Below, in pieces: positions 1,740 to 50,248 of a DNA stretch of 50,248 nucleotides (position 1 is its first letter; every line of letters starts with the position of its first letter). Source of the stretch: Elusimicrobiaceae bacterium (GTDB lineage: Bacteria > Elusimicrobiota > Elusimicrobia > Elusimicrobiales > Elusimicrobiaceae); assembly GCA_017528825.1 (NCBI GenBank), contig JAFXOI010000025.1, positions 1-50,248 of the forward strand. The letters run 5' to 3'. Both the position numbers and the translations under genes were made by a program. Below the pieces are notes generated by a model. The model was not told the origin of the DNA. It searched no databases and saw nothing but the letters and a program-made list of their open reading frames with translations.

Positions 1740-4700
1740 ATGCTAAAAAAATCATTTTTTTCTCTTTTATTTATTAGTTGTTTTTCGCTGGCGGGGGCGG
1801 AGCCGTTGCAAGTGGTATCTGTTTCTCCCAAGGGAGATGTTTCTCATGCCGGAAAGCGGGCCATCCAAGTTACCTTTAATCAACCGGTCGTGGCCTTGTC
1901 TGAAAAAAATGCTTTTGCTCAAGGAAACTGCCCGCTGGTTATTACGCCTGCCGTTGCCGGCACTTGCCGATACACAGGCACTCAAACCTTACAATTTGAA
2001 CCTGCTGAAAACTGGAAAAATGCTACAGAGTATAAAGTTTCTTTACCGGCCGGATTTTCTTCTTCCGTGTCTAAACAGAAACTAGCCAAAGAGGAAAGCT
2101 GGTCTTTTACGACCCCTCGCCCGTCGGTGCAACAGGTACTTCCCAGCTCCAACGAACAATGGATTGATGTGCGCCCGCTCATTTATGTCAAAATGTCTCA
2201 GCCGGTAGATTTAGAAATAGCTAAACAAGCCTTTCATTTGACTCATCCGCTAGCGGCACAAGAGCCCAGCTGGTGGGAGCGTATCAAAGCGTATGTATGG
2301 TCAGAAAATTTGCCATCTAATTCACAAGTGGCAGAAGTGCCCGTGACATTGCGTCGTCTTACCGCCAAAGAAAAAGAAGATAATTATTCCTATTTAACGC
2401 ATACCAATCAAGTGTTTGTAGCAGAAGTGCAAAAAGATTTACCGGTGCAAACCCCTGTTACAATTACCCTTTCTAAAAATTTGCACGGTACGGAAGGCCC
2501 TTTGGGTTTAGCAGAAGATTTTACTTCTGTTTTCCATACCTATCCTAAACTTCAAGTGGCCGGAGCCAATGTGGAGGGGTGTTTGCCATTTGACGCACAT
2601 ATAGATTTTACTTCTCCGGTGCGCTTGTCAGATTTAATGAAGCATATGACGATTTCCCCGCAGGCGGCCTTGGCTGAGATTACAGAACAAGAAGCCCAGA
2701 CCTTAGGCTATCAACGTTACGTGCCGGAAAAGCAGGAAGAAGAAAAACCGGTTTCACATCCGGTGCGATTGCCCGCCGGTACGGGTTACTTTGTCATGCC
2801 TCTTTCCTTTTTGCGTTTGCAACCTCATCAGCCGGTTACGGTTACGATTGATAAAGATTTGACAGATATTTACGGACAGAAATTGGGTCGGTCTCGCACG
2901 TTTACAGTAACTAATAACGGGTATTGTCCTGCGGTCGTATTTAAGGGAGGAACCGGCGTATTAGAAAGCTATTTGCCGGCCCGTCATCCCATTGATGTGC
3001 TCAATGAGGAATCGGTCGAGGTATATGCGGCTCGGTACGGAAAAGAAACTTTTATTCCGTTTGCACAAAAAGATATTCCTTATTGCAAACAAGCGGAACT
3101 GGATAAAGCGGCGGTGCAGTATAACGGAAAATATGATTTCCATATTTCTGCGGACAAAACCCGAAAAACTTATTTAGATTTATCACGCTTTCACCCCAGT
3201 GCCCATGAGAGCATTATCTTTTCACAAGTGCGGGTTCCCAGTGCGTATCGGGCAGATGGTTTCTGCTGGGTGGGCGCTACGGATAATATTACCGATCTGG
3301 GAGTCACTCTTAAAACTTCCCAAGAAAATACGTTAGTGTGGGTTACTTCTTTGCAAACAGGAGAGCCGCAAGGCAATTTGAACGTAGAACTCAGAGACAG
3401 CTCTAACCGCACGGTATGGAGCGGTAGCACCGATGCGAACGGATTAGCTTGGGCTCCCGGGTGGAAAGAATTAAATGTAAAAGCCGCCAATCGTTGGAGC
3501 CGACCGATTTTATATGCTTTTGTCAGTAGCGTGGGAGGAGACGCGGTACTAGCCAGTGACTGGAATGACGGACTGGAATTATGGCGTTTTAACATCAATT
3601 ATGATTATTCTCCGCAGGGTAGTACACTTAAAACCGCGCTTTTTACAGACCGTGGCGTATATCGTCCGGGAGAGACCGTTTATCTAAAAGGACTCACGCG
3701 TCAGTTGAAAAAAGGAGCGTGGCAATTACCGGAAGTTTCGAAGGTATTGGTGAAAATTTACAATTCTCGCGGAGACGAGATGTTTAAGCAAACAATCAGC
3801 TATCAAAAAGGATCGTTTGACTGGTCTTTCGTGCTGCCCAAAGAAGCCACAACAGGTACCTGGCAAGTATATGCAGTACCTGAGAATAGCGAAGAAGATA
3901 CCATTTACTCTTTTCAGGTAGAAGCCGTCAAGCAAGCAGATTTTGAAGTGAATGTGCGTGAATTGCAGCCGTCATATATCGGTGGACAAAAAGCAGAATT
4001 TACTGCCTCTGCCCAATATCTTTTCGGAGCACCGGTAGCCGGCGGAAAAGTAAAGTGGACCGTACGCCGAGCGAATGAATGGTTTGATCCGAAAGGGTAT
4101 GATGATTATATTTTCGTTCCCTATTTCCTGTCACGGGAAGATCAAACAAAAGATGGCTTGTTGGTGGAATCTTCGGGAGAGTTAGATGAGCAAGGAAAAA
4201 TTAATTTTTCCGTTCCATTGCCTAAAGTATCTCGCATGCAAATGCTGTATGCAGAGGTAGGAGTACAAGCTCCCACCGGCCAAGAATTATTTGCTAGAAA
4301 AAGTATCCCTTTGTATCCGGCCGAATTCTATTTGGGAGCTTATATGGAACGCTGGTCGACCGAACTGGGAGAACCGGTCAAAGCCCAGTTGCTTGCGGTG
4401 AATGAAAAAGGAAAACGTGTTGGCCCCGTGCAGGTCAAAGCCACGATTGAAAAAGAAGAGTATTTATCCATTCGTAAAAACGGTCTTGCCGGGCGTTTGG
4501 AATGGGTTAGCCAGCGACGTACGAAAAAATATCCTTCTCAAACATTCACGGTTGGTATGGACGGATATGATTTTTCTTTCGTGCCTGACAAAGCCGGTAG
4601 TTATTTGATTACCCTGTCGGCTAAAGACAGTCAAGGGCGCACCGTACGCGGCGGTTTTGAAGTGACGGTATATGGAAAAGGCGAGGCCTATTGGAAGCAA

Positions 4701-7427
4701 AATGATGATGATATCCTCGTACTCAAACAGGATAAGAATTCTTACCAAATTGGAGATACGGCCCGTATTTTAGTGCAAAGTCCGTACGAGAATGCAACCG
4801 CACTGGTGAGCGTCGAACAGAATGGAGTATTAGACAGTTGGGTCACTCCAATTTCTGCCGGAGCCGATTCAATCGAGGTGCCCATCAAGGCCAGTTATAC
4901 TCCAAATGTATTTGTGAGCGTGACGTTGGTGCGCGGCCGCGCCGAAAAAGCAGCTTACGACGAAGAAGGATTAGATTTAGCAAAACCGCAGGGAAAAACG
5001 GGATATGTACAGTTGATTGTTTCGCAAGAAGAACGGGAAATTACGACGACGGTTTCTCCCGCTAAAACTGCGTACCGACCCGGGGAAGAAGTGCGGGTCA
5101 AAATTAATACGCGAGTGCAAGATAAACCGACACCGGCCGAAGTAACATTTATGGCAGTGGATGACGGAATACTTTTGCTAACCGGTTATCAAGTACCCAA
5201 TTTAATGAAAGTATTTTATTTCTTGCGGCCGTTAACTGTTTTAACTGCTGACAACCGTTCCTTTTTAATCGGCCAGCGTAATTTCGGTGAAAAAGGAGAA
5301 AATCGCGGCGGCGGCGGTGGGTTAGGCAATAAATTAGGCGGCGCGGATTTACGTAGCCATTTTGAGTTCACCCCTTACTTTAATGCGACCGTGCGTACCA
5401 ATGACAAAGGAAAGGCAGAAGTGAAATTCAAATTGCCGGATAATTTGACGAAATTCCGTTTGATGGCCGTGGCATCTACCGTCAAAGAATTCGGATCCGG
5501 AGAAGCTACCATTACGGTGTCAAAGCCTTTGATGATTACGCCGAAAATGCCGCGTTTTGCCCGCCAGTCAGATGAGTTTTCATGCGGCGCAGTCGTCTAC
5601 AATTATGAAGATGAAAAAGGAATCATTACGGTCACCGCGCGTGCTTCCGGCGCAGTAACACTGGCAGAAAAGACGCAACAAATCCACGTGCAAAAAGGAG
5701 CCGCGCAAGAAGTAACGTGGCCGTGTCAGGCTAAGGAACTGGGGCAGGCAAGTGTGATCTTTACTGCTAAAGGAGCGAAAGAAGAAGATGCCGTGCAACA
5801 TGCATTTTCTGTTATCCCCGTGGAAAAACAACAGACGCTGGCGTTGTATAGTGCTACAGAAGACACGCAAACCCAGCAATTAGAGAAACCGGATTCTGTC
5901 AATCCGCAAGTACCCAGTACCGTAAATCTTTCACTCGCTTCTACGGCTCTATTGAATTTACGGGGAAGCATGTTGTATTTGCTCACGTATCCGTACGATT
6001 GTTTAGAGCAGAAAATGTCTAAAATTTGGCCGGTCATAGAAGGCGCTGATCTGATAAAAGATTTCAAGTTGGGCGACACCACTTCCTATCGGAAAAAAAC
6101 GCAGGAAATTTTAGATGAAATACCCTCTTACCAACACAGTTCCGGCGGATTGGGTTATTGGCCGCAAGTACAGCCCGATCCGTATGTAACGGCTTATGCT
6201 TTAGAGACAGCTTATCACGCCCAAAAAGCAGGTTACAAAGTGCCTACGGACTCTTTGAAAAAGGCCAAAACTTGGTTGAAAGGTATTTTTAACGGTAACA
6301 AGATGCACGCTTATCCATACTCGTCTTTGGAAAATCAAACCGTACGTGCGTATGCCGTGTACGTATTGGCTTTATACGGGGAGAAATTGGAAAGTCATTT
6401 CAATACGTTATATAGCCATCGTAACGGATTGAGTTTGGCCGGGCAGGCTTATTTGTTGCAAGCGGCTAAATTGCTTGGCAAAGGAGCAGAAATCGAGAAA
6501 ACATTGGCACAAGGATTACTAAATCAAGCGCAATACGGAGCTCAGACCATTCATTTCTCAAGCGGAGAAAATCAGCCGTGGTTGCATATGAGTGCCGTGA
6601 AAGAAACTGCTGTGAGTTTGGATGCTTTATTAAAAGCGGGTGCTTATTTGCAACAACCGTATCAGGTCGTGCGTTGGCTCATAGAACAGCTTAATGCACA
6701 AGGTCACTGGCAAAATACCAATGCAAATGCCGCTGTATTTAGAGCTTTGCATACATACTATACGTTGCAAGAAGCGCAGGAGCCGCAGTTTAAGGCGGCT
6801 GTTTCACTGGACGGGAAAGAAGTGTTTCACGCTCGTTTTGAAGGACGCAGTGTCGAAACACAGCAGACTGCTTGGCCCTTTAATCAGGTATATGCCAAAC
6901 AAGATCAGGCGACTGTACGGGTGCAAAAATCCGGCGCAGGACGAGTTTATTATACCTTGGCCCAGACCTATGCGCCTAAGGCATATACAACGCCCATTCA
7001 GGCCGGTTTTACGCTCACGCGTCAGCTGACAGACTTGAAAGGCAATCCTGTTACTCGCTTGCAAGCCGGTGAGCGCTATAAAGTAACCTTGAAAACAAGT
7101 ACTTCATCGGCCTATTCTTTTGTGGTGCTGGAGGATTTTATTCCTGCCGGTTTTGAGATCGTCAATACCAACTTAGCCACCGAAAGCCGCAACGATGCAG
7201 ATTCTCTGCAAAATTCGGATTGGGGTGGTTTTGAACGGGATGAAAAATACGACGACCGCATTGCTATTTTTGCGGATTATTTGAACGCCGGTGAAAATGA
7301 GTACAGTTATTTGGTACAGGCGATGACAGCCGGCACTTATCAATATCCCAGCGCATGGGCCAGCCAAATGTATGATCCGGCGGTATTTGGGCGTAACACT
7401 ACGCAAACATGGACAATTGAACCTTAA
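1740..7427 (+). CDS. Bacterial alpha-2-macroglobulin family protein (YfhM-like)
   Basis: An 1895-aa periplasmic or envelope protease trap. Family knowledge: bacterial A2Ms expose a bait region, and on cleavage a Cys-Gln thioester captures the protease; they are thought to guard periplasmic proteins when peptidoglycan is breached. Seen: a signal peptide ending near AGA-EP, repeated MG-type beta domains, and the thioester motif YPYDCLEQ with C1421 and Q1424, so the trap is predicted to be active. A Gly-rich stretch sits near residues 1190-1205. No clear lipobox: the early Cys14 is preceded by F-I-S, a poor match, so soluble versus lipidated is open. The start follows an AAAGGAG ribosome site. 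It overlaps pbpC by one base (TAATG), so the pair is translationally coupled, as in many Gram-negatives. Confidence 0.95.
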   Translation: MLKKSFFSLLFISCFSLAGAEPLQVVSVSPKGDVSHAGKRAIQVTFNQPVVALSEKNAFAQGNCPLVITPAVAGTCRYTGTQTLQFEPAENWKNATEYKVSLPAGFSSSVSKQKLAKEESWSFTTPRPSVQQVLPSSNEQWIDVRPLIYVKMSQPVDLEIAKQAFHLTHPLAAQEPSWWERIKAYVWSENLPSNSQVAEVPVTLRRLTAKEKEDNYSYLTHTNQVFVAEVQKDLPVQTPVTITLSKNLHGTEGPLGLAEDFTSVFHTYPKLQVAGANVEGCLPFDAHIDFTSPVRLSDLMKHMTISPQAALAEITEQEAQTLGYQRYVPEKQEEEKPVSHPVRLPAGTGYFVMPLSFLRLQPHQPVTVTIDKDLTDIYGQKLGRSRTFTVTNNGYCPAVVFKGGTGVLESYLPARHPIDVLNEESVEVYAARYGKETFIPFAQKDIPYCKQAELDKAAVQYNGKYDFHISADKTRKTYLDLSRFHPSAHESIIFSQVRVPSAYRADGFCWVGATDNITDLGVTLKTSQENTLVWVTSLQTGEPQGNLNVELRDSSNRTVWSGSTDANGLAWAPGWKELNVKAANRWSRPILYAFVSSVGGDAVLASDWNDGLELWRFNINYDYSPQGSTLKTALFTDRGVYRPGETVYLKGLTRQLKKGAWQLPEVSKVLVKIYNSRGDEMFKQTISYQKGSFDWSFVLPKEATTGTWQVYAVPENSEEDTIYSFQVEAVKQADFEVNVRELQPSYIGGQKAEFTASAQYLFGAPVAGGKVKWTVRRANEWFDPKGYDDYIFVPYFLSREDQTKDGLLVESSGELDEQGKINFSVPLPKVSRMQMLYAEVGVQAPTGQELFARKSIPLYPAEFYLGAYMERWSTELGEPVKAQLLAVNEKGKRVGPVQVKATIEKEEYLSIRKNGLAGRLEWVSQRRTKKYPSQTFTVGMDGYDFSFVPDKAGSYLITLSAKDSQGRTVRGGFEVTVYGKGEAYWKQNDDDILVLKQDKNSYQIGDTARILVQSPYENATALVSVEQNGVLDSWVTPISAGADSIEVPIKASYTPNVFVSVTLVRGRAEKAAYDEEGLDLAKPQGKTGYVQLIVSQEEREITTTVSPAKTAYRPGEEVRVKINTRVQDKPTPAEVTFMAVDDGILLLTGYQVPNLMKVFYFLRPLTVLTADNRSFLIGQRNFGEKGENRGGGGGLGNKLGGADLRSHFEFTPYFNATVRTNDKGKAEVKFKLPDNLTKFRLMAVASTVKEFGSGEATITVSKPLMITPKMPRFARQSDEFSCGAVVYNYEDEKGIITVTARASGAVTLAEKTQQIHVQKGAAQEVTWPCQAKELGQASVIFTAKGAKEEDAVQHAFSVIPVEKQQTLALYSATEDTQTQQLEKPDSVNPQVPSTVNLSLASTALLNLRGSMLYLLTYPYDCLEQKMSKIWPVIEGADLIKDFKLGDTTSYRKKTQEILDEIPSYQHSSGGLGYWPQVQPDPYVTAYALETAYHAQKAGYKVPTDSLKKAKTWLKGIFNGNKMHAYPYSSLENQTVRAYAVYVLALYGEKLESHFNTLYSHRNGLSLAGQAYLLQAAKLLGKGAEIEKTLAQGLLNQAQYGAQTIHFSSGENQPWLHMSAVKETAVSLDALLKAGAYLQQPYQVVRWLIEQLNAQGHWQNTNANAAVFRALHTYYTLQEAQEPQFKAAVSLDGKEVFHARFEGRSVETQQTAWPFNQVYAKQDQATVRVQKSGAGRVYYTLAQTYAPKAYTTPIQAGFTLTRQLTDLKGNPVTRLQAGERYKVTLKTSTSSAYSFVVLEDFIPAGFEIVNTNLATESRNDADSLQNSDWGGFERDEKYDDRIAIFADYLNAGENEYSYLVQAMTAGTYQYPSAWASQMYDPAVFGRNTTQTWTIEP

Positions 7428-9550
7428 TGAAAAAGTTAGCAGTTTATTTGGCAATGGGACTTGTTTTACTTCCCCGTCTAACGAACGGGGAAGTATTGTC
7501 TGTAGAGGCGGGCGCGGTATCTGTGCCGGCTTCCGTGCAAGTATTGGATAATCAAAATCATCCGTTACAGACTTTTTTATCTAATCGCCAAACTTATTCC
7601 GAACCGGTGTCTTTATCAGACATTTCTCCTTTTGTTTTGCTAGCCGTACAGGCGGCAGAAGACCGTCGTTTTTATAAACACCATGGCATTGATTTTAAGG
7701 CGGTGTTGCGCGCAGTTTGGCAAAATGTACGATGGCACGGTATTGTGTCGGGGGCTTCTACGATTACCCAGCAATTGGTGCGCGCCTTGCATCCTCGGCC
7801 TAAGAATTGGCGTAACAAATGGATAGAAGCGTGGGATGCGTGGCAGTTAGAGCGAAAGTATTCTAAAGATGAGATCTTGCAGCAATATCTAAATATACTG
7901 GAGTTTGGTAATCATACGCAGGGTATTGAAGCCGCGGCGCGGTTTTACTTTGGTGTGCCGGCCAGTGAATTATCCGTGGCACAGAGTGCCTTGCTTGCCG
8001 GACTGATTCAATCGCCTACGCGGTTAAATCCGCTTAAAAATCCGGAAGGGGCACTGGTCCGTCGCAATCGAGTACTGCAAGCTATGTATCGAAATCAGTT
8101 TATTACGCAAGAGGACTATCACTTGGCTTTATCTGAACCCTTGGCTTTGCAAGCTACTACCCGTCCGGTACAGGCACCGCATTTTTCACGACTGATTTCA
8201 CGCTTAACTTCACCCGGAGAACAGGTGCAGACTTTTTTGGACGCAGATTTGCAACAGTATGCTGAAACTACCTTGCAAAGACACGTAGATCGCTTGGCAG
8301 AGGAACATGTGACCAATGCCGCCGCTGTGGTGCTGGATAATCAGACAGGAGCGGTTTTGGCCTATGTGGGATCAGCTGATTTTGAGGATGTGGAGCATGC
8401 CGGACAAGTAGACGGAGTGCTGGCTAAGCGGCAACCGGGATCTGCCTTGAAACCGTTCGTGTATGCATTAGCTTTGGAAAACGGATTTACGGCGGCTAGT
8501 ATTTTGCAAGATGAAGATACTTTTTTCGAAGGAGGATTCCGGCCGCGTAATTACGATGGTAAATTCCATGGGGGAGTATCGGTACGACGTGCATTGGCCA
8601 ATTCGTATAATGTGCCTGTTGTGCGCGTGGCAGAGACGTTAGGCGCGGCGCGTATTTTGCAAGAGTTACATGCTTTTGGATTTGCTTCATTAAATCATCC
8701 GGCAGAATTTTATGGACTGGGAATTGCCTTAGGTGGGGGGGAAGTAACTTTGTTAGAACTGGCTAATGCTTATAGCGCTTTGGCACGCGGGGGACTTGTA
8801 AAACCAGTGGTTTTTGCGCGCGAACCACGACTGCAAAGCAATACTGTTTCCGTGCGTGCAGTGCCGGAGGAAATCAGCTATATCATTACCGATATCTTGG
8901 CTGATAATGCCGCGCGGGCGGATGCTTTTGGCTTAAATTCTGCGTTACAATTTCCTTTTCCGGCGGCTGCCAAAACCGGCACGAGCAAAGATTATAAAGA
9001 TAATTTTGCAATCGGTTATACTGCGCGTATTACGGTGGCGGTTTGGGCGGGAAACTTTGACGGATCTTCGATGCAAAAAGTATCCGGTGTGACGGGGGCG
9101 GCTCCCATTTTGCATGATATTTTAGTTTATGCAACTAAGCGTTATCCGGCCGGTCCGTTTGCAAAACCGTACGGAGTAGTGTCTGCACGTATTTGTACGC
9201 ACAGCGGACTTTTAGCCGGAGAGAATTGTGCCGCTACGCGCGAAGAACTTTTTACAACGGACACCATACCTACGCAAATTTGTGACGGCACACATGAGAG
9301 TATGCCGGCTCCGTTACAATTTATTTTCCCCGTGCGAGGAGATGTGTTTGTGTATGATAAATCTTTGCCCGATACTTCTCAACAACTGCACATACAGGTT
9401 TCCGCGCAAGCGCCGTGTTCGTGGCGGTTAAACGACCAGCCGCTACCGGAGACGGAGTCTGAATTTTGGTGGCCGCTTCAAAAAGGCAAATTTGACTTAA
9501 CGGTTACATGCTCGGGGCAGACGGCCCAAACATTTTTTACGGTATTGTAA
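7427..9550 (+). CDS. pbpC: Penicillin-binding protein 1C (bifunctional transglycosylase/transpeptidase)
   Basis: 707 aa. Signal/TM segment at residues 1-22. GT51 transglycosylase domain with E78 in EDRRFY, then GASTITQQLVR and the YLN..EFG region. Transpeptidase domain with S339-x-x-K342 (GSALKPF), S393-Y-N and K516-T-G. A C-terminal ~90-residue BiPBP_C-type beta domain ends the protein, which separates PBP1C from other class A PBPs. It polymerises and cross-links peptidoglycan at the outer face of the inner membrane. Its start overlaps the A2M stop; A2M-PBP1C pairs are a well-known conserved couple thought to link wall repair with protease defence. All catalytic motifs are intact. Confidence 0.95.
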   Translation: MKKLAVYLAMGLVLLPRLTNGEVLSVEAGAVSVPASVQVLDNQNHPLQTFLSNRQTYSEPVSLSDISPFVLLAVQAAEDRRFYKHHGIDFKAVLRAVWQNVRWHGIVSGASTITQQLVRALHPRPKNWRNKWIEAWDAWQLERKYSKDEILQQYLNILEFGNHTQGIEAAARFYFGVPASELSVAQSALLAGLIQSPTRLNPLKNPEGALVRRNRVLQAMYRNQFITQEDYHLALSEPLALQATTRPVQAPHFSRLISRLTSPGEQVQTFLDADLQQYAETTLQRHVDRLAEEHVTNAAAVVLDNQTGAVLAYVGSADFEDVEHAGQVDGVLAKRQPGSALKPFVYALALENGFTAASILQDEDTFFEGGFRPRNYDGKFHGGVSVRRALANSYNVPVVRVAETLGAARILQELHAFGFASLNHPAEFYGLGIALGGGEVTLLELANAYSALARGGLVKPVVFAREPRLQSNTVSVRAVPEEISYIITDILADNAARADAFGLNSALQFPFPAAAKTGTSKDYKDNFAIGYTARITVAVWAGNFDGSSMQKVSGVTGAAPILHDILVYATKRYPAGPFAKPYGVVSARICTHSGLLAGENCAATREELFTTDTIPTQICDGTHESMPAPLQFIFPVRGDVFVYDKSLPDTSQQLHIQVSAQAPCSWRLNDQPLPETESEFWWPLQKGKFDLTVTCSGQTAQTFFTVL

Positions 9551-9563
9551 ATCTTTTCTTTGT

Positions 9564-9626
9564 TTGGCCGTTTTTTCGTCGGGAAATAAAAAAGGCTTGA
9601 CATCGTTTTTTTTTTTTTTATACCAT
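9564..9626 (+). promoter_or_regulatory. Poly-T spacer pilin promoter, copy A
   Basis: A block starting TTGGCCG, followed by a TCGTCGGGAAATAAAAAAGGC segment, leads into -35 TTGACA (9597-9602). A spacer dominated by T14 (9606-9619) follows, then -10-like TACCAT (9621-9626), giving an 18-nt spacer. Copies B (17630) and C (49813) share the upstream block and have T12. Copy A has the longest T tract and the poorest -10 match. Confidence 0.7.
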
Positions 9627-9801: not shown

Positions 9802-10311
9802 ATGTTTGTAAGAAATAACAGAGCTTTTACGCTTATTGAGCTGTTAGTAGTAGTCTTGATTATTGGTATTTTATCGGCCATCGCCCTGCCTCAATATGAA
9901 AAAGCGGTTGTTAAATCGCGCTTTGCGGAAGCTTTTGTGAATTTAAAAACAATTGCTAATGCTGTGCAAGTATGTGAATTAGAAACAGGGACACAAGCTG
10001 CAAATAATCATAATATTGGATGTGCTAATTTTGACAATTTAAGTATTGATATAGGAGATATAGCGGAGGATGGTGCTCGGGCTACAACAGAGAAATTTTG
10101 GTATTACGCAGGCCCTCATACTGCTTTGATAAGTGATAATGTTAAAGCAGTTGCTGTTAGTAGAGAGTGGGAGTATTGTGTATGTATATATGGTGATGGA
10201 CATTTTGAGGGCCATGTAGATGATGGTGCTTATACAGGAGGGAAAATACCTACATTTGATATTTCTAAACTTTTACAAATAGAGGATACTGGAACCTGTG
10301 AATGTGCGTAG
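9802..10311 (+). CDS. Type IV pilin-like protein
   Basis: 169 aa. I chose the ATG at 9802 because an AAGGAGGG ribosome site lies 7-8 nt upstream; the frame is open back to 9658 but that part is the palindromic repeat. Leader MFVRNNRA^FTLIELL with Ala at -1 and Glu at +5, then the pilin helix and [10 protein letters not shown]. The mature part is short with about five Cys near the end (CxC and CECA), and it ends in a Cys-rich tail. This is the [10 protein letters not shown] subclass shared with 30511 and 40127, but it uses the poly-T promoter of the other subclass. Its 5' UTR is about 90 bp longer than those at 17777 and 49960 because of the inserted repeat. Function as major, minor or pseudopilin cannot be told. 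Confidence 0.85.
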   Translation: MFVRNNRAFTLIELLVVVLIIGILSAIALPQYEKAVVKSRFAEAFVNLKTIANAVQVCELETGTQAANNHNIGCANFDNLSIDIGDIAEDGARATTEKFWYYAGPHTALISDNVKAVAVSREWEYCVCIYGDGHFEGHVDDGAYTGGKIPTFDISKLLQIEDTGTCECA

Positions 10312-17629: not shown

Positions 17630-17690
17630 TTGGCCGTTTTATCGTCGGGAAATAAAAAAGGCTTGACTCGTTTTTTTTTTTTGCTACGAT
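17630..17690 (+). promoter_or_regulatory. Poly-T spacer pilin promoter, copy B
   Basis: The same upstream block as at 9564 (TTGGCCG then TCGTCGGGAAATAAAAAAGG). -35 TTGACT (17663-17668), spacer 16 nt made of CG, T12 (17671-17682) and GC, then -10 TACGAT (17685-17690). It drives the pilin at 17777. The 5' UTR holds an AACGCC/GGGCGTT pair that copy C keeps with a wobble. Confidence 0.75.
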
Positions 17691-17776: not shown

Positions 17777-18778
17777 ATGTCAAGGAAAGCCTTTACTTTA
17801 ATTGAATTACTAATCGTAGTTCTGATTATCGGTATTTTGTCAGCTATTGCTATCCCCATGTATCAAAGTGCAGTAGATAAGAGCCGCTGGAGCACTTTAT
17901 TAGCTCCGGCCAAAGCCTTGCAAACTGCCCAAGCCGCTGCTCATATGGAAACCGGAGCTTATGCCGATAATACCAGCGCCTTGGTGGTGTCGTTAGCAGG
18001 CGAAGCCGAAGACAATAAATATATTATGGCTGACGCAGAATATAGTATTGATACCAAAAACGATAATCAAAGCACGATTACGGGAGCATTAACGGCATTA
18101 CCCAATGTGCGCTTATCCATGTTCTTAAAAGATCCGGAAACGTATTTATTTTGTGATGCTAAGACTGGGGATAGTAGAGCCGAGCGCTTATGCGGGAGTT
18201 TATTAGGTGGTACGAAAGCCAGCACGAAGGACGGCTACACAAAATATCTATTAGATTATCCCGGCCCATGTGCATGGGCTAACAGTACGGGACAATGTTA
18301 TACTAGCGAAGAAGCACGTTGCACAGCTTTGGGTATGCCATATAATAATGGAACATGTGGATATAAGAACGAAAATGGTGCTACGATTAATGAAGGCGGT
18401 GTTTGTGACGGTGATGACAGTTGGGGTAATAACAGTAATAGTGCTGAGAGATATGAACATCAATGTCGTCATGCAATCGTAAATGAAGATGCAATTTGTC
18501 TTTCAAGTGGTTATGGATCCTGTGCAGATTCTGAAATAAATAATGGAGGAATTTGTAAAGTAACAGGAAGACAATATGGTTGTATTCGGGCAATTATTAA
18601 TGCAGGAGGCGTATGTCTTGGAGAGGGGGGGCAAAATTCTTGCATAAATGTTACAGTTAACGGTGGAAAATGTATTGCAAAAACTTCAGGGGCATGTGCG
18701 GGAGGCACCTACACTAATGGTGGGTGTTGCGAAGATTATGGACAAGGTTATTGCCCGTCAGACGCTCCAAAATGTTAG
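17777..18778 (+). CDS. Type IV pilin-like protein with Cys-rich variable tail
   Basis: 333 aa. Leader MSRKA^FTLIELL with Glu at +5; the N-terminal ~150 residues share IAIPMYQ, AVDKSRW and AERLC blocks with the pilins at 8 and 49960. The C-terminal half (~170-333) is Cys-rich, with irregular repeats of N-x-G-G-x-C spaced 15-25 residues, over 20 Cys in all, and ends in Cys. It is twice normal pilin length. Start chosen at ATG 17777 after CAGGAG. The tail differs wholly from the tail of the gene at 8, although the N-terminal parts align. Likely surface-exposed with disulfides; target unknown. Confidence 0.85.
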   Translation: MSRKAFTLIELLIVVLIIGILSAIAIPMYQSAVDKSRWSTLLAPAKALQTAQAAAHMETGAYADNTSALVVSLAGEAEDNKYIMADAEYSIDTKNDNQSTITGALTALPNVRLSMFLKDPETYLFCDAKTGDSRAERLCGSLLGGTKASTKDGYTKYLLDYPGPCAWANSTGQCYTSEEARCTALGMPYNNGTCGYKNENGATINEGGVCDGDDSWGNNSNSAERYEHQCRHAIVNEDAICLSSGYGSCADSEINNGGICKVTGRQYGCIRAIINAGGVCLGEGGQNSCINVTVNGGKCIAKTSGACAGGTYTNGGCCEDYGQGYCPSDAPKC

Positions 18779-49812: not shown

Positions 49813-49873
49813 TTGGCCGTTTTGTTGTCGGGAAATAGAAAAGGCTTGACTCGTTTTTTTTTTTTGCTACAAT
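49813..49873 (+). promoter_or_regulatory. Poly-T spacer pilin promoter, copy C
   Basis: The same upstream block as copies A and B. -35 TTGACT (49846-49851), 16-nt spacer with T12 (49854-49865), -10 TACAAT (49868-49873), the best -10 of the three. Confidence 0.75.
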
Positions 49874-49959: not shown

Positions 49960-50248
49960 ATGTCAAAGAAAGCCTTTACTTTAATAGAGTTGTTGATAGT
50001 AGTACTTATTATTGGAGTATTAAGTGCTATTGCTATCCCAATGTATCAAGGAGCAGTAGACAAAAGTCATTGGAGCACGATGTTACCGGGAGCCAAAGCG
50101 ATAAAAGACGCAGAAGAAGCTTTTAAAATGGCCAATGCGGGATATACCGACACCATGGCTAATTTAGACGTAACAATGGAAAACAATGATTTAACATTTA
50201 ATTTAATTACTCCTAATAATACATCTGACCCCAATGTAATCAGAGTAA
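49960..50248 (+). CDS. Type IV pilin-like protein (truncated by window end)
   Basis: Starts at ATG 49960 after CAGGAG. Leader MSKKA^FTLIELL, then IAIPMYQGAVDKSHW, the same subclass as the pilins at 8 and 17777. The frame is still open at the last base, so at least 96 residues are seen and the tail is missing. By analogy the tail may be long and Cys-rich. Its promoter and 5' UTR are homologous to those of the 17777 gene, so the upstream segment and N-terminus move together as one unit. Confidence 0.85.
   Translation, partial: MSKKAFTLIELLIVVLIIGVLSAIAIPMYQGAVDKSHWSTMLPGAKAIKDAEEAFKMANAGYTDTMANLDVTMENNDLTFNLITPNNTSDPNVIRV

What the first reader, a model, noticed from the sequence alone, without database searches (positions are those of the whole stretch)
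17630..17690. Phase-variable pilin promoter family with homopolymeric T spacer
Seen: three pilin genes (9802, 17777, 49960) share an almost identical 61-63-bp block whose -35 to -10 spacer is mostly T12 or T14. Established: homopolymer tracts in promoter spacers drive slipped-strand phase variation, for example in Neisseria and Haemophilus. Spacing differs here (16, 18 and 16 nt), as expected from tract length change. Each pilin could be switched on and off separately.
Basis: partly seen in the sequence, partly recalled or inferred. Interest (0 to 1): 0.78.

Follow-up and report, generated by a model that had tools for sequence, protein, structure and literature searches.

The report
T-run promoters on pilin gene family
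In an uncultured Elusimicrobium-like gut bacterium every long run of T in the genome sits inside the promoter of a type IV pilin gene, a design that should let run-length mistakes tune or switch dozens of surface proteins one by one, although the switching itself has not been seen.

Summary
The three window promoters match a 61-63 bp block and belong to a genome-wide family. All 32 T runs of 10 or more in this 1.53 Mb Elusimicrobiota MAG follow TTGAC with a -10-like hexamer next, and all point into a pilin gene 33-205 bp downstream. The genome has 113 pilins. The same layout recurs in sister species with different flanking bases, in two of them also as poly-A, and is absent from 250 genomes outside the family. 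Across 23 congeners pilin number tracks T-run number (rho 0.88). The -35/-10 spacer is held at 16 nt (104 of 159), with 15 or 17 in 42 and rarer 12-14, 18 and 20. Orthologous spacers differ by 0 or 1. Tracts are pure: 0 interruptions in 206 positions. Best reading: slippage-prone contingency promoters that set pilin transcription, with length kept near one favoured value. 'Each pilin switched on and off separately' is plausible but unproven; uniform T12 at the large pilins argues against free random switching, and 1-nt steps may tune rather than switch. Structural T-tract and recombination readings remain. No read-level, strain-level or transcription data were available.

The parts
17630..17662 (+). 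conserved block upstream of -35 (TTGGCCGTTTTATCGTCGGGAAATAAAAAAGGC), possible regulator or insulator element
   Evidence: shared by 17 sites genome-wide, ungapped over 44 nt
17663..17668 (+). -35-like hexamer TTGACT
   Evidence: invariant TTGAC in all 32 T-run promoters
17671..17682 (+). T12 tract in the spacer (spacer 17669-17684, 16 nt)
17685..17690 (+). -10-like hexamer TACGAT
17777..18778 (+). class A pilin, 333 aa, conserved N-terminus and variable Cys-rich C-terminus
   Evidence: PF07963 E 2.5e-6; family comparison
9564..9596 (+). conserved upstream block
9597..9602 (+). -35-like hexamer TTGACA
9606..9619 (+). T14 tract in the spacer (spacer 9603-9620, 18 nt)
9621..9626 (+). -10-like hexamer TACCAT
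9802..10311 (+). class B pilin, 169 aa
   Evidence: PF07963 E 1.9e-8
49813..49845 (+). conserved upstream block
49846..49851 (+). -35-like hexamer TTGACT
49854..49865 (+). T12 tract in the spacer (spacer 49852-49867, 16 nt)
49868..49873 (+). -10-like hexamer TACAAT
49960..50248 (+). class A pilin, cut by the contig end
   Evidence: PF07963 E 6.9e-7

Best explanation
These are sigma70-like core promoters of a very large type IV pilin gene family in which most of the -35/-10 spacer is a pure run of T. Shown: sequence, placement, exclusivity, purity, spread over species, and spacer-length differences of about 1 nt between paralogs and between orthologs. Inferred: replication slippage adds or removes T's, which changes the -35/-10 spacing and so the transcription of that one pilin gene, giving cells of one population different mixes of pilins (contingency promoters). 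Selection keeps the population-modal length at the value giving a 16-nt spacer, so outlying copies (spacers 12-14 or 20) would be the low or off states and 15-17 graded states. The expected behaviour is therefore closer to a dial with occasional off states than to a symmetric on/off switch.
For: All 32 T runs of 10 or more in the genome are in TTGAC-T-run promoters that lead into a pilin ORF; about 0.9% of strand-specific positions lie that close upstream of a pilin. Other long A/T runs are missing although models expect about 1-4 of 10 or more per 50 kb. Across 23 congeners pilin number and T-run number correlate, rho 0.88, p 4e-8; 14 genomes of another family show no correlation. Tract purity 0/206 against 50/357 substitutions in neighbouring upstream positions, p 4e-11, and 14/391 in the block proper, p 0.003. 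Length varies between copies while the 44 nt upstream has no indel. Orthologous loci: spacers equal in 4 pairs and differing by 1 in 3. Poly-A replaces poly-T in G011 and G015, with the same 16-nt spacing in G011 if GATAAT is the -10, so a homopolymer rather than T is kept. Pilin N-termini are conserved and the rest diverse, median identity 59% class A and 24% class B. Precedents: M. hyorhinis vlp poly-A promoters (PMC10502178), B. pertussis fim C-stretch (PMC1891110).
Against: No reads, strains or transcripts were seen. Modal length is very uniform: 16-nt spacer in 104 of 159; T12 in 11 of 12 class A promoters of the length-blind set. Fast unselected slippage would spread lengths more. Spacers 15-19 all support good expression in an E. 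coli synthetic library (PMC8695583). Only about a third of the 113 pilins have such a promoter. Most length counts come from patterns that require T of 10 or more, so short tracts are undercounted (one search adds three T8 cases).
Confidence: 0.55

Rival explanations
1. The T (or A) tract is a fixed structural part of the promoter: stiff A-tract DNA in the spacer sets strength, supercoiling response or binding of a dedicated regulator. Length is held by purifying selection and slippage is a cost, not a use.
For: Spacer held at 16 nt while flanking bases change; T and non-T lengths compensate, Spearman -0.57 (partly trivial because a substitution at the tract edge does the same). Poly-A and poly-T both occur and give the same duplex. 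Spacer sequence alone can change promoter strength about tenfold (PMC8695583). A T-tract near the H. pylori sabA promoter acts through DNA shape (PMC11162790).
Against: Spacers from 12 to 20 exist, 3 of 7 orthologous pairs differ by 1, and the feature is confined to a diverse surface-protein family. A structural element would not need an uninterrupted, error-prone run.
Confidence: 0.3
2. The shared promoters are a by-product of gene duplication and gene conversion among pilin cassettes; the tract was copied with the cassette and also serves as homology for cassette exchange. No function lies in tract length.
For: Promoter block, 5'UTR and pilin N-terminus are near-identical among class A copies. 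Cassette exchange is visible at orthologous loci: pilin replaced between kept flanks (L113/L124) or promoter and 5'UTR replaced before a 94% identical pilin (L139/L142).
Against: The tract survives in species whose flanks share little similarity and in two different upstream contexts in the own genome; tract purity exceeds that of the rest of the block.
Confidence: 0.12
3. Hairpin plus T run is an intrinsic terminator or attenuator rather than a promoter spacer.
For: An inverted repeat often lies just before TTGAC, GC-rich in some species (G085, G011).
Against: 8-9 nt (TTGAC plus 3-4) separate hairpin and T run; a -10-like TANNAT follows at near-fixed distance; pilin starts lie as near as 33-40 nt, leaving room only for initiation after the tract; the poly-A version cannot terminate in that direction.
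Confidence: 0.03

Closest known systems
Mycoplasma hyorhinis vlp promoters (poly-A tract)
   Same: multigene surface-protein family, each gene with its own promoter carrying a homopolymeric A/T tract; on/off transcription tied to indels in the tract (PMC10502178)
   Different: here the tract fills the -35/-10 spacer, the genes are type IV pilins, 30-80 copies per genome, modal length conserved between species; switching not shown
Bordetella pertussis fim2/fim3/fimX C-stretch promoters
   Same: several fimbrial subunit genes with homopolymer promoters whose length changes transcription (PMC1891110)
   Different: C tract, chaperone-usher fimbriae (own knowledge), few genes, 'fim box' element; T tract and type IV pilins here
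Neisseria meningitidis porA / H. influenzae hif promoter spacers (from own knowledge, not tested)
   Same: repeat in the -35/-10 spacer, spacing sets expression
   Different: poly-G or TA repeats, one or two genes
Helicobacter pylori sabA T-tract
   Same: mononucleotide T-tract near the promoter of a surface protein, length changes transcription (PMC11162790)
   Different: tract lies upstream of the core promoter and works through UP-like elements, one gene

Membership tests
Simple-sequence-repeat phase variation of promoters | homopolymer tract between or next to -35 and -10 elements | tested here: met
Simple-sequence-repeat phase variation of promoters | tract longer than chance in its genome | tested here: met
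   all 32 T runs of 10 or more are in these promoters
Simple-sequence-repeat phase variation of promoters | tract length differs between strains or related genomes at the same locus | tested here: inconclusive
   3 of 7 orthologous pairs differ by 1 nt in spacer length, between species not strains
Simple-sequence-repeat phase variation of promoters | length mixed within a clonal population, reversible and frequent | not testable with these tools
   no reads; MAG consensus only
Simple-sequence-repeat phase variation of promoters | transcription depends on tract length | not testable with these tools
   needs reporter or RNA data
Type IV pilin / pseudopilin | N-terminal prepilin cleavage and methylation motif | tested here: met
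   PF07963 above cut-off for 113 loci and the window pilins
Type IV pilin / pseudopilin | pilin fold and assembly into a filament | not tested
   no structure prediction run
Intrinsic terminator | GC hairpin directly followed by the T run | tested here: not met
   8-9 nt between hairpin and T run; many hairpins AT-rich

The most novel reading that the evidence does not exclude
A whole bacterial family has turned the promoters of its expanded pilin repertoire into a shared homopolymer-spacer design (poly-T or poly-A, 16-nt set point), so that slippage tunes tens of surface filament subunits independently: an unusually large promoter-based contingency system of one gene family, with selection on the set point rather than random on/off states.
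Probability: 0.4. Interest if true: 0.8.

Novelty: new variant of a known kind. Interest (0 to 1): 0.62.

Why it matters
If tract length sets pilin expression, these gut and rumen bacteria carry 30 or more independently adjustable surface genes in a 1.5 Mb genome, in a phylum where my library searches found no description of phase variation. It would explain what an exceptional pilin expansion is for, and it is directly testable in existing metagenome reads. It also offers a natural library of promoters that differ mainly in spacer length.

Tried and rejected
Viral contigs: no hit. The one genome-contig scan gave a single named relative, RUG12698, no second strain. A syntenic comparison at the 17.6-kb locus found only distant relatives (best 73% identity); one of them, G006:C66, has a T12 promoter at the matching place. 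Terminator reading considered and rejected (distances, poly-A version). The strict pattern misses congeners with other -10 sequences (for example L106, G008), so zero counts are lower bounds. The compensation of T and non-T lengths was considered as proof of length selection but partly follows from edge substitutions, so it is used only as evidence that total spacing is conserved. The E. minutum genome paper was not held.

Full report
Observation. The three promoters are at the stated places. Block identities are 57/63, 55/63 and 57/61; tracts are T14, T12 and T12; spacers are 18, 16 and 16 nt in window order. Each leads into an ORF with the PF07963 prepilin motif. The shared block has no chance counterpart in shuffles, and the three tracts are the only A/T runs of 9 or more in the window.

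Genome-wide. The window is contig C25 of a 1.53 Mb, 41-contig MAG. The nearest named relative with the motif is an uncultured Elusimicrobium sp. MAG, RUG12698, where the same promoter again precedes a pilin. The genome has 113 N_methyl loci. It has 32 T runs of 10 or more (17 forward, 15 reverse); 31 match TTGAC-T-run-TANNAT with no hit to the reversed control, and the last, C5:47473, has TTGACACTTAC-T11-GTACCT before a pilin. Thirty-one of 32 have a pilin ORF start within 205 bp; the 32nd, C39:53695, runs off the contig after ATGTCAAAGA, the start of a class A pilin. Three further T8 copies precede pilins with a 13-nt spacer (read against the pilin positions).

Two classes. Class A (TTGAC[TC][TC]G-T12-GC-TAC[GCA]AT) drives 300-470 aa pilins with a conserved N-terminus (median 93% over 30 residues) and a divergent Cys-rich remainder (median 59%, maximum 75%). 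Class B (TTGACA[TC][TC]G-Tn-...-TATMAT and similar) drives 150-200 aa pilins (90% and 24%). Upstream there are two block types: TTGGCCGTTTTNTCGTCGGGAAATAAAAAAGGC and an inverted repeat ATACTTTTTCTT-CGGA-AAGAAAAAGTAT.

Spread. A stricter pattern over 340 genomes of the phylum hits 25 of the 66 genomes of the own genus and 3 genomes of a sister genus of the same family, none of 250 others, with zero reversed-control hits. Copy numbers reach 83-84. Flanking bases are species-specific. In G011 and G015 pilin promoters occur also with poly-A in the coding strand, TTGACAAATC-A11-CGATAAT. In 23 congeners pilin count and T-run count go together, rho 0.88 (the pilin count of G011 is capped at 150). Congeners hold 22 to at least 150 pilins, genomes of the neighbouring family 3-11.

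Length and purity. In 159 promoters from 10 species the spacer is 16 in 104, 15 in 26, 17 in 16, and 12-14, 18 or 20 in 13 (transcribed; T of 10 or more required in most, so short tracts are undercounted). In the 17 own-genome sites found by the upstream block alone, tract lengths are 10-16 with 12 in 12 sites, no tract is interrupted (0/206 positions), and the 44 nt upstream show 64 substitutions but no indel; part of those 44 nt was the ungapped search pattern itself, so indels there would have been missed. For seven pairs of loci with orthologous flanks (73-92% identity) spacers are equal in four and differ by one in three. At several of these loci pilins or promoter-UTR modules have been exchanged while the T-tract core remained.

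Mechanism. Shown: the core promoter layout, its exclusive use for pilins, kept homopolymer purity, small length changes. Inferred from established knowledge of SSR promoters (vlp, PMC10502178; fim, PMC1891110; sabA T-tract, PMC11162790): slippage changes spacing and transcription. In E. coli synthetic promoters 16-18 nt are best, 15-19 still high, shorter spacers weak (PMC8695583); with the non-consensus -10 (TACGAT) used here the effect could be steeper, but a one-base slip may well be a modest change. The data fit contingency promoters with a selected set point better than random independent on/off switches; they do not exclude a purely structural role of the tract.

Limits. MAG consensus lengths only; no strain, read or RNA data; transcription start sites not mapped; pilin call rests on the N-terminal motif.

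Noticed in passing
L078-L081 (G011), L084-L085 (G015): Pilin promoters with poly-A instead of poly-T in the coding-strand spacer, TTGACAAATC-A11-CGATAAT, similar spacing.
   Followed up: partly
L106 (G008), L104 (G016), L110 (G021): In some congeners the -10 and the pilin start codon lie in one inverted repeat, for example GATAAATTTTGCCTATGAGCAAAATTTATC, right after the T tract.
   Followed up: no
17630-17662 and G000 C1, C4, C9, C17, C31, C35, C39: Inverted repeats lie before the -35 more than in shuffled sequence (94 promoters, p 8e-5); one own-genome type is a palindrome with 12-nt arms. Possible regulator site.
   Followed up: partly
L113/L124, L139/L142, L136/L147: Cassette exchange at orthologous pilin loci: pilin replaced between conserved flanks, or promoter and 5'UTR replaced before a conserved pilin.
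   Followed up: partly
49960-50248 and ends of contigs C5, C9, C13, C17, C39: Several contigs end inside or just before class A or other T-run pilins, so assembly breaks at these repeats and the true copy number may be higher.
   Followed up: no
1740-9550: Bacterial alpha-2-macroglobulin gene followed by a penicillin-binding protein of the PBP1C type, directly upstream of the 9802 promoter.
   Followed up: no
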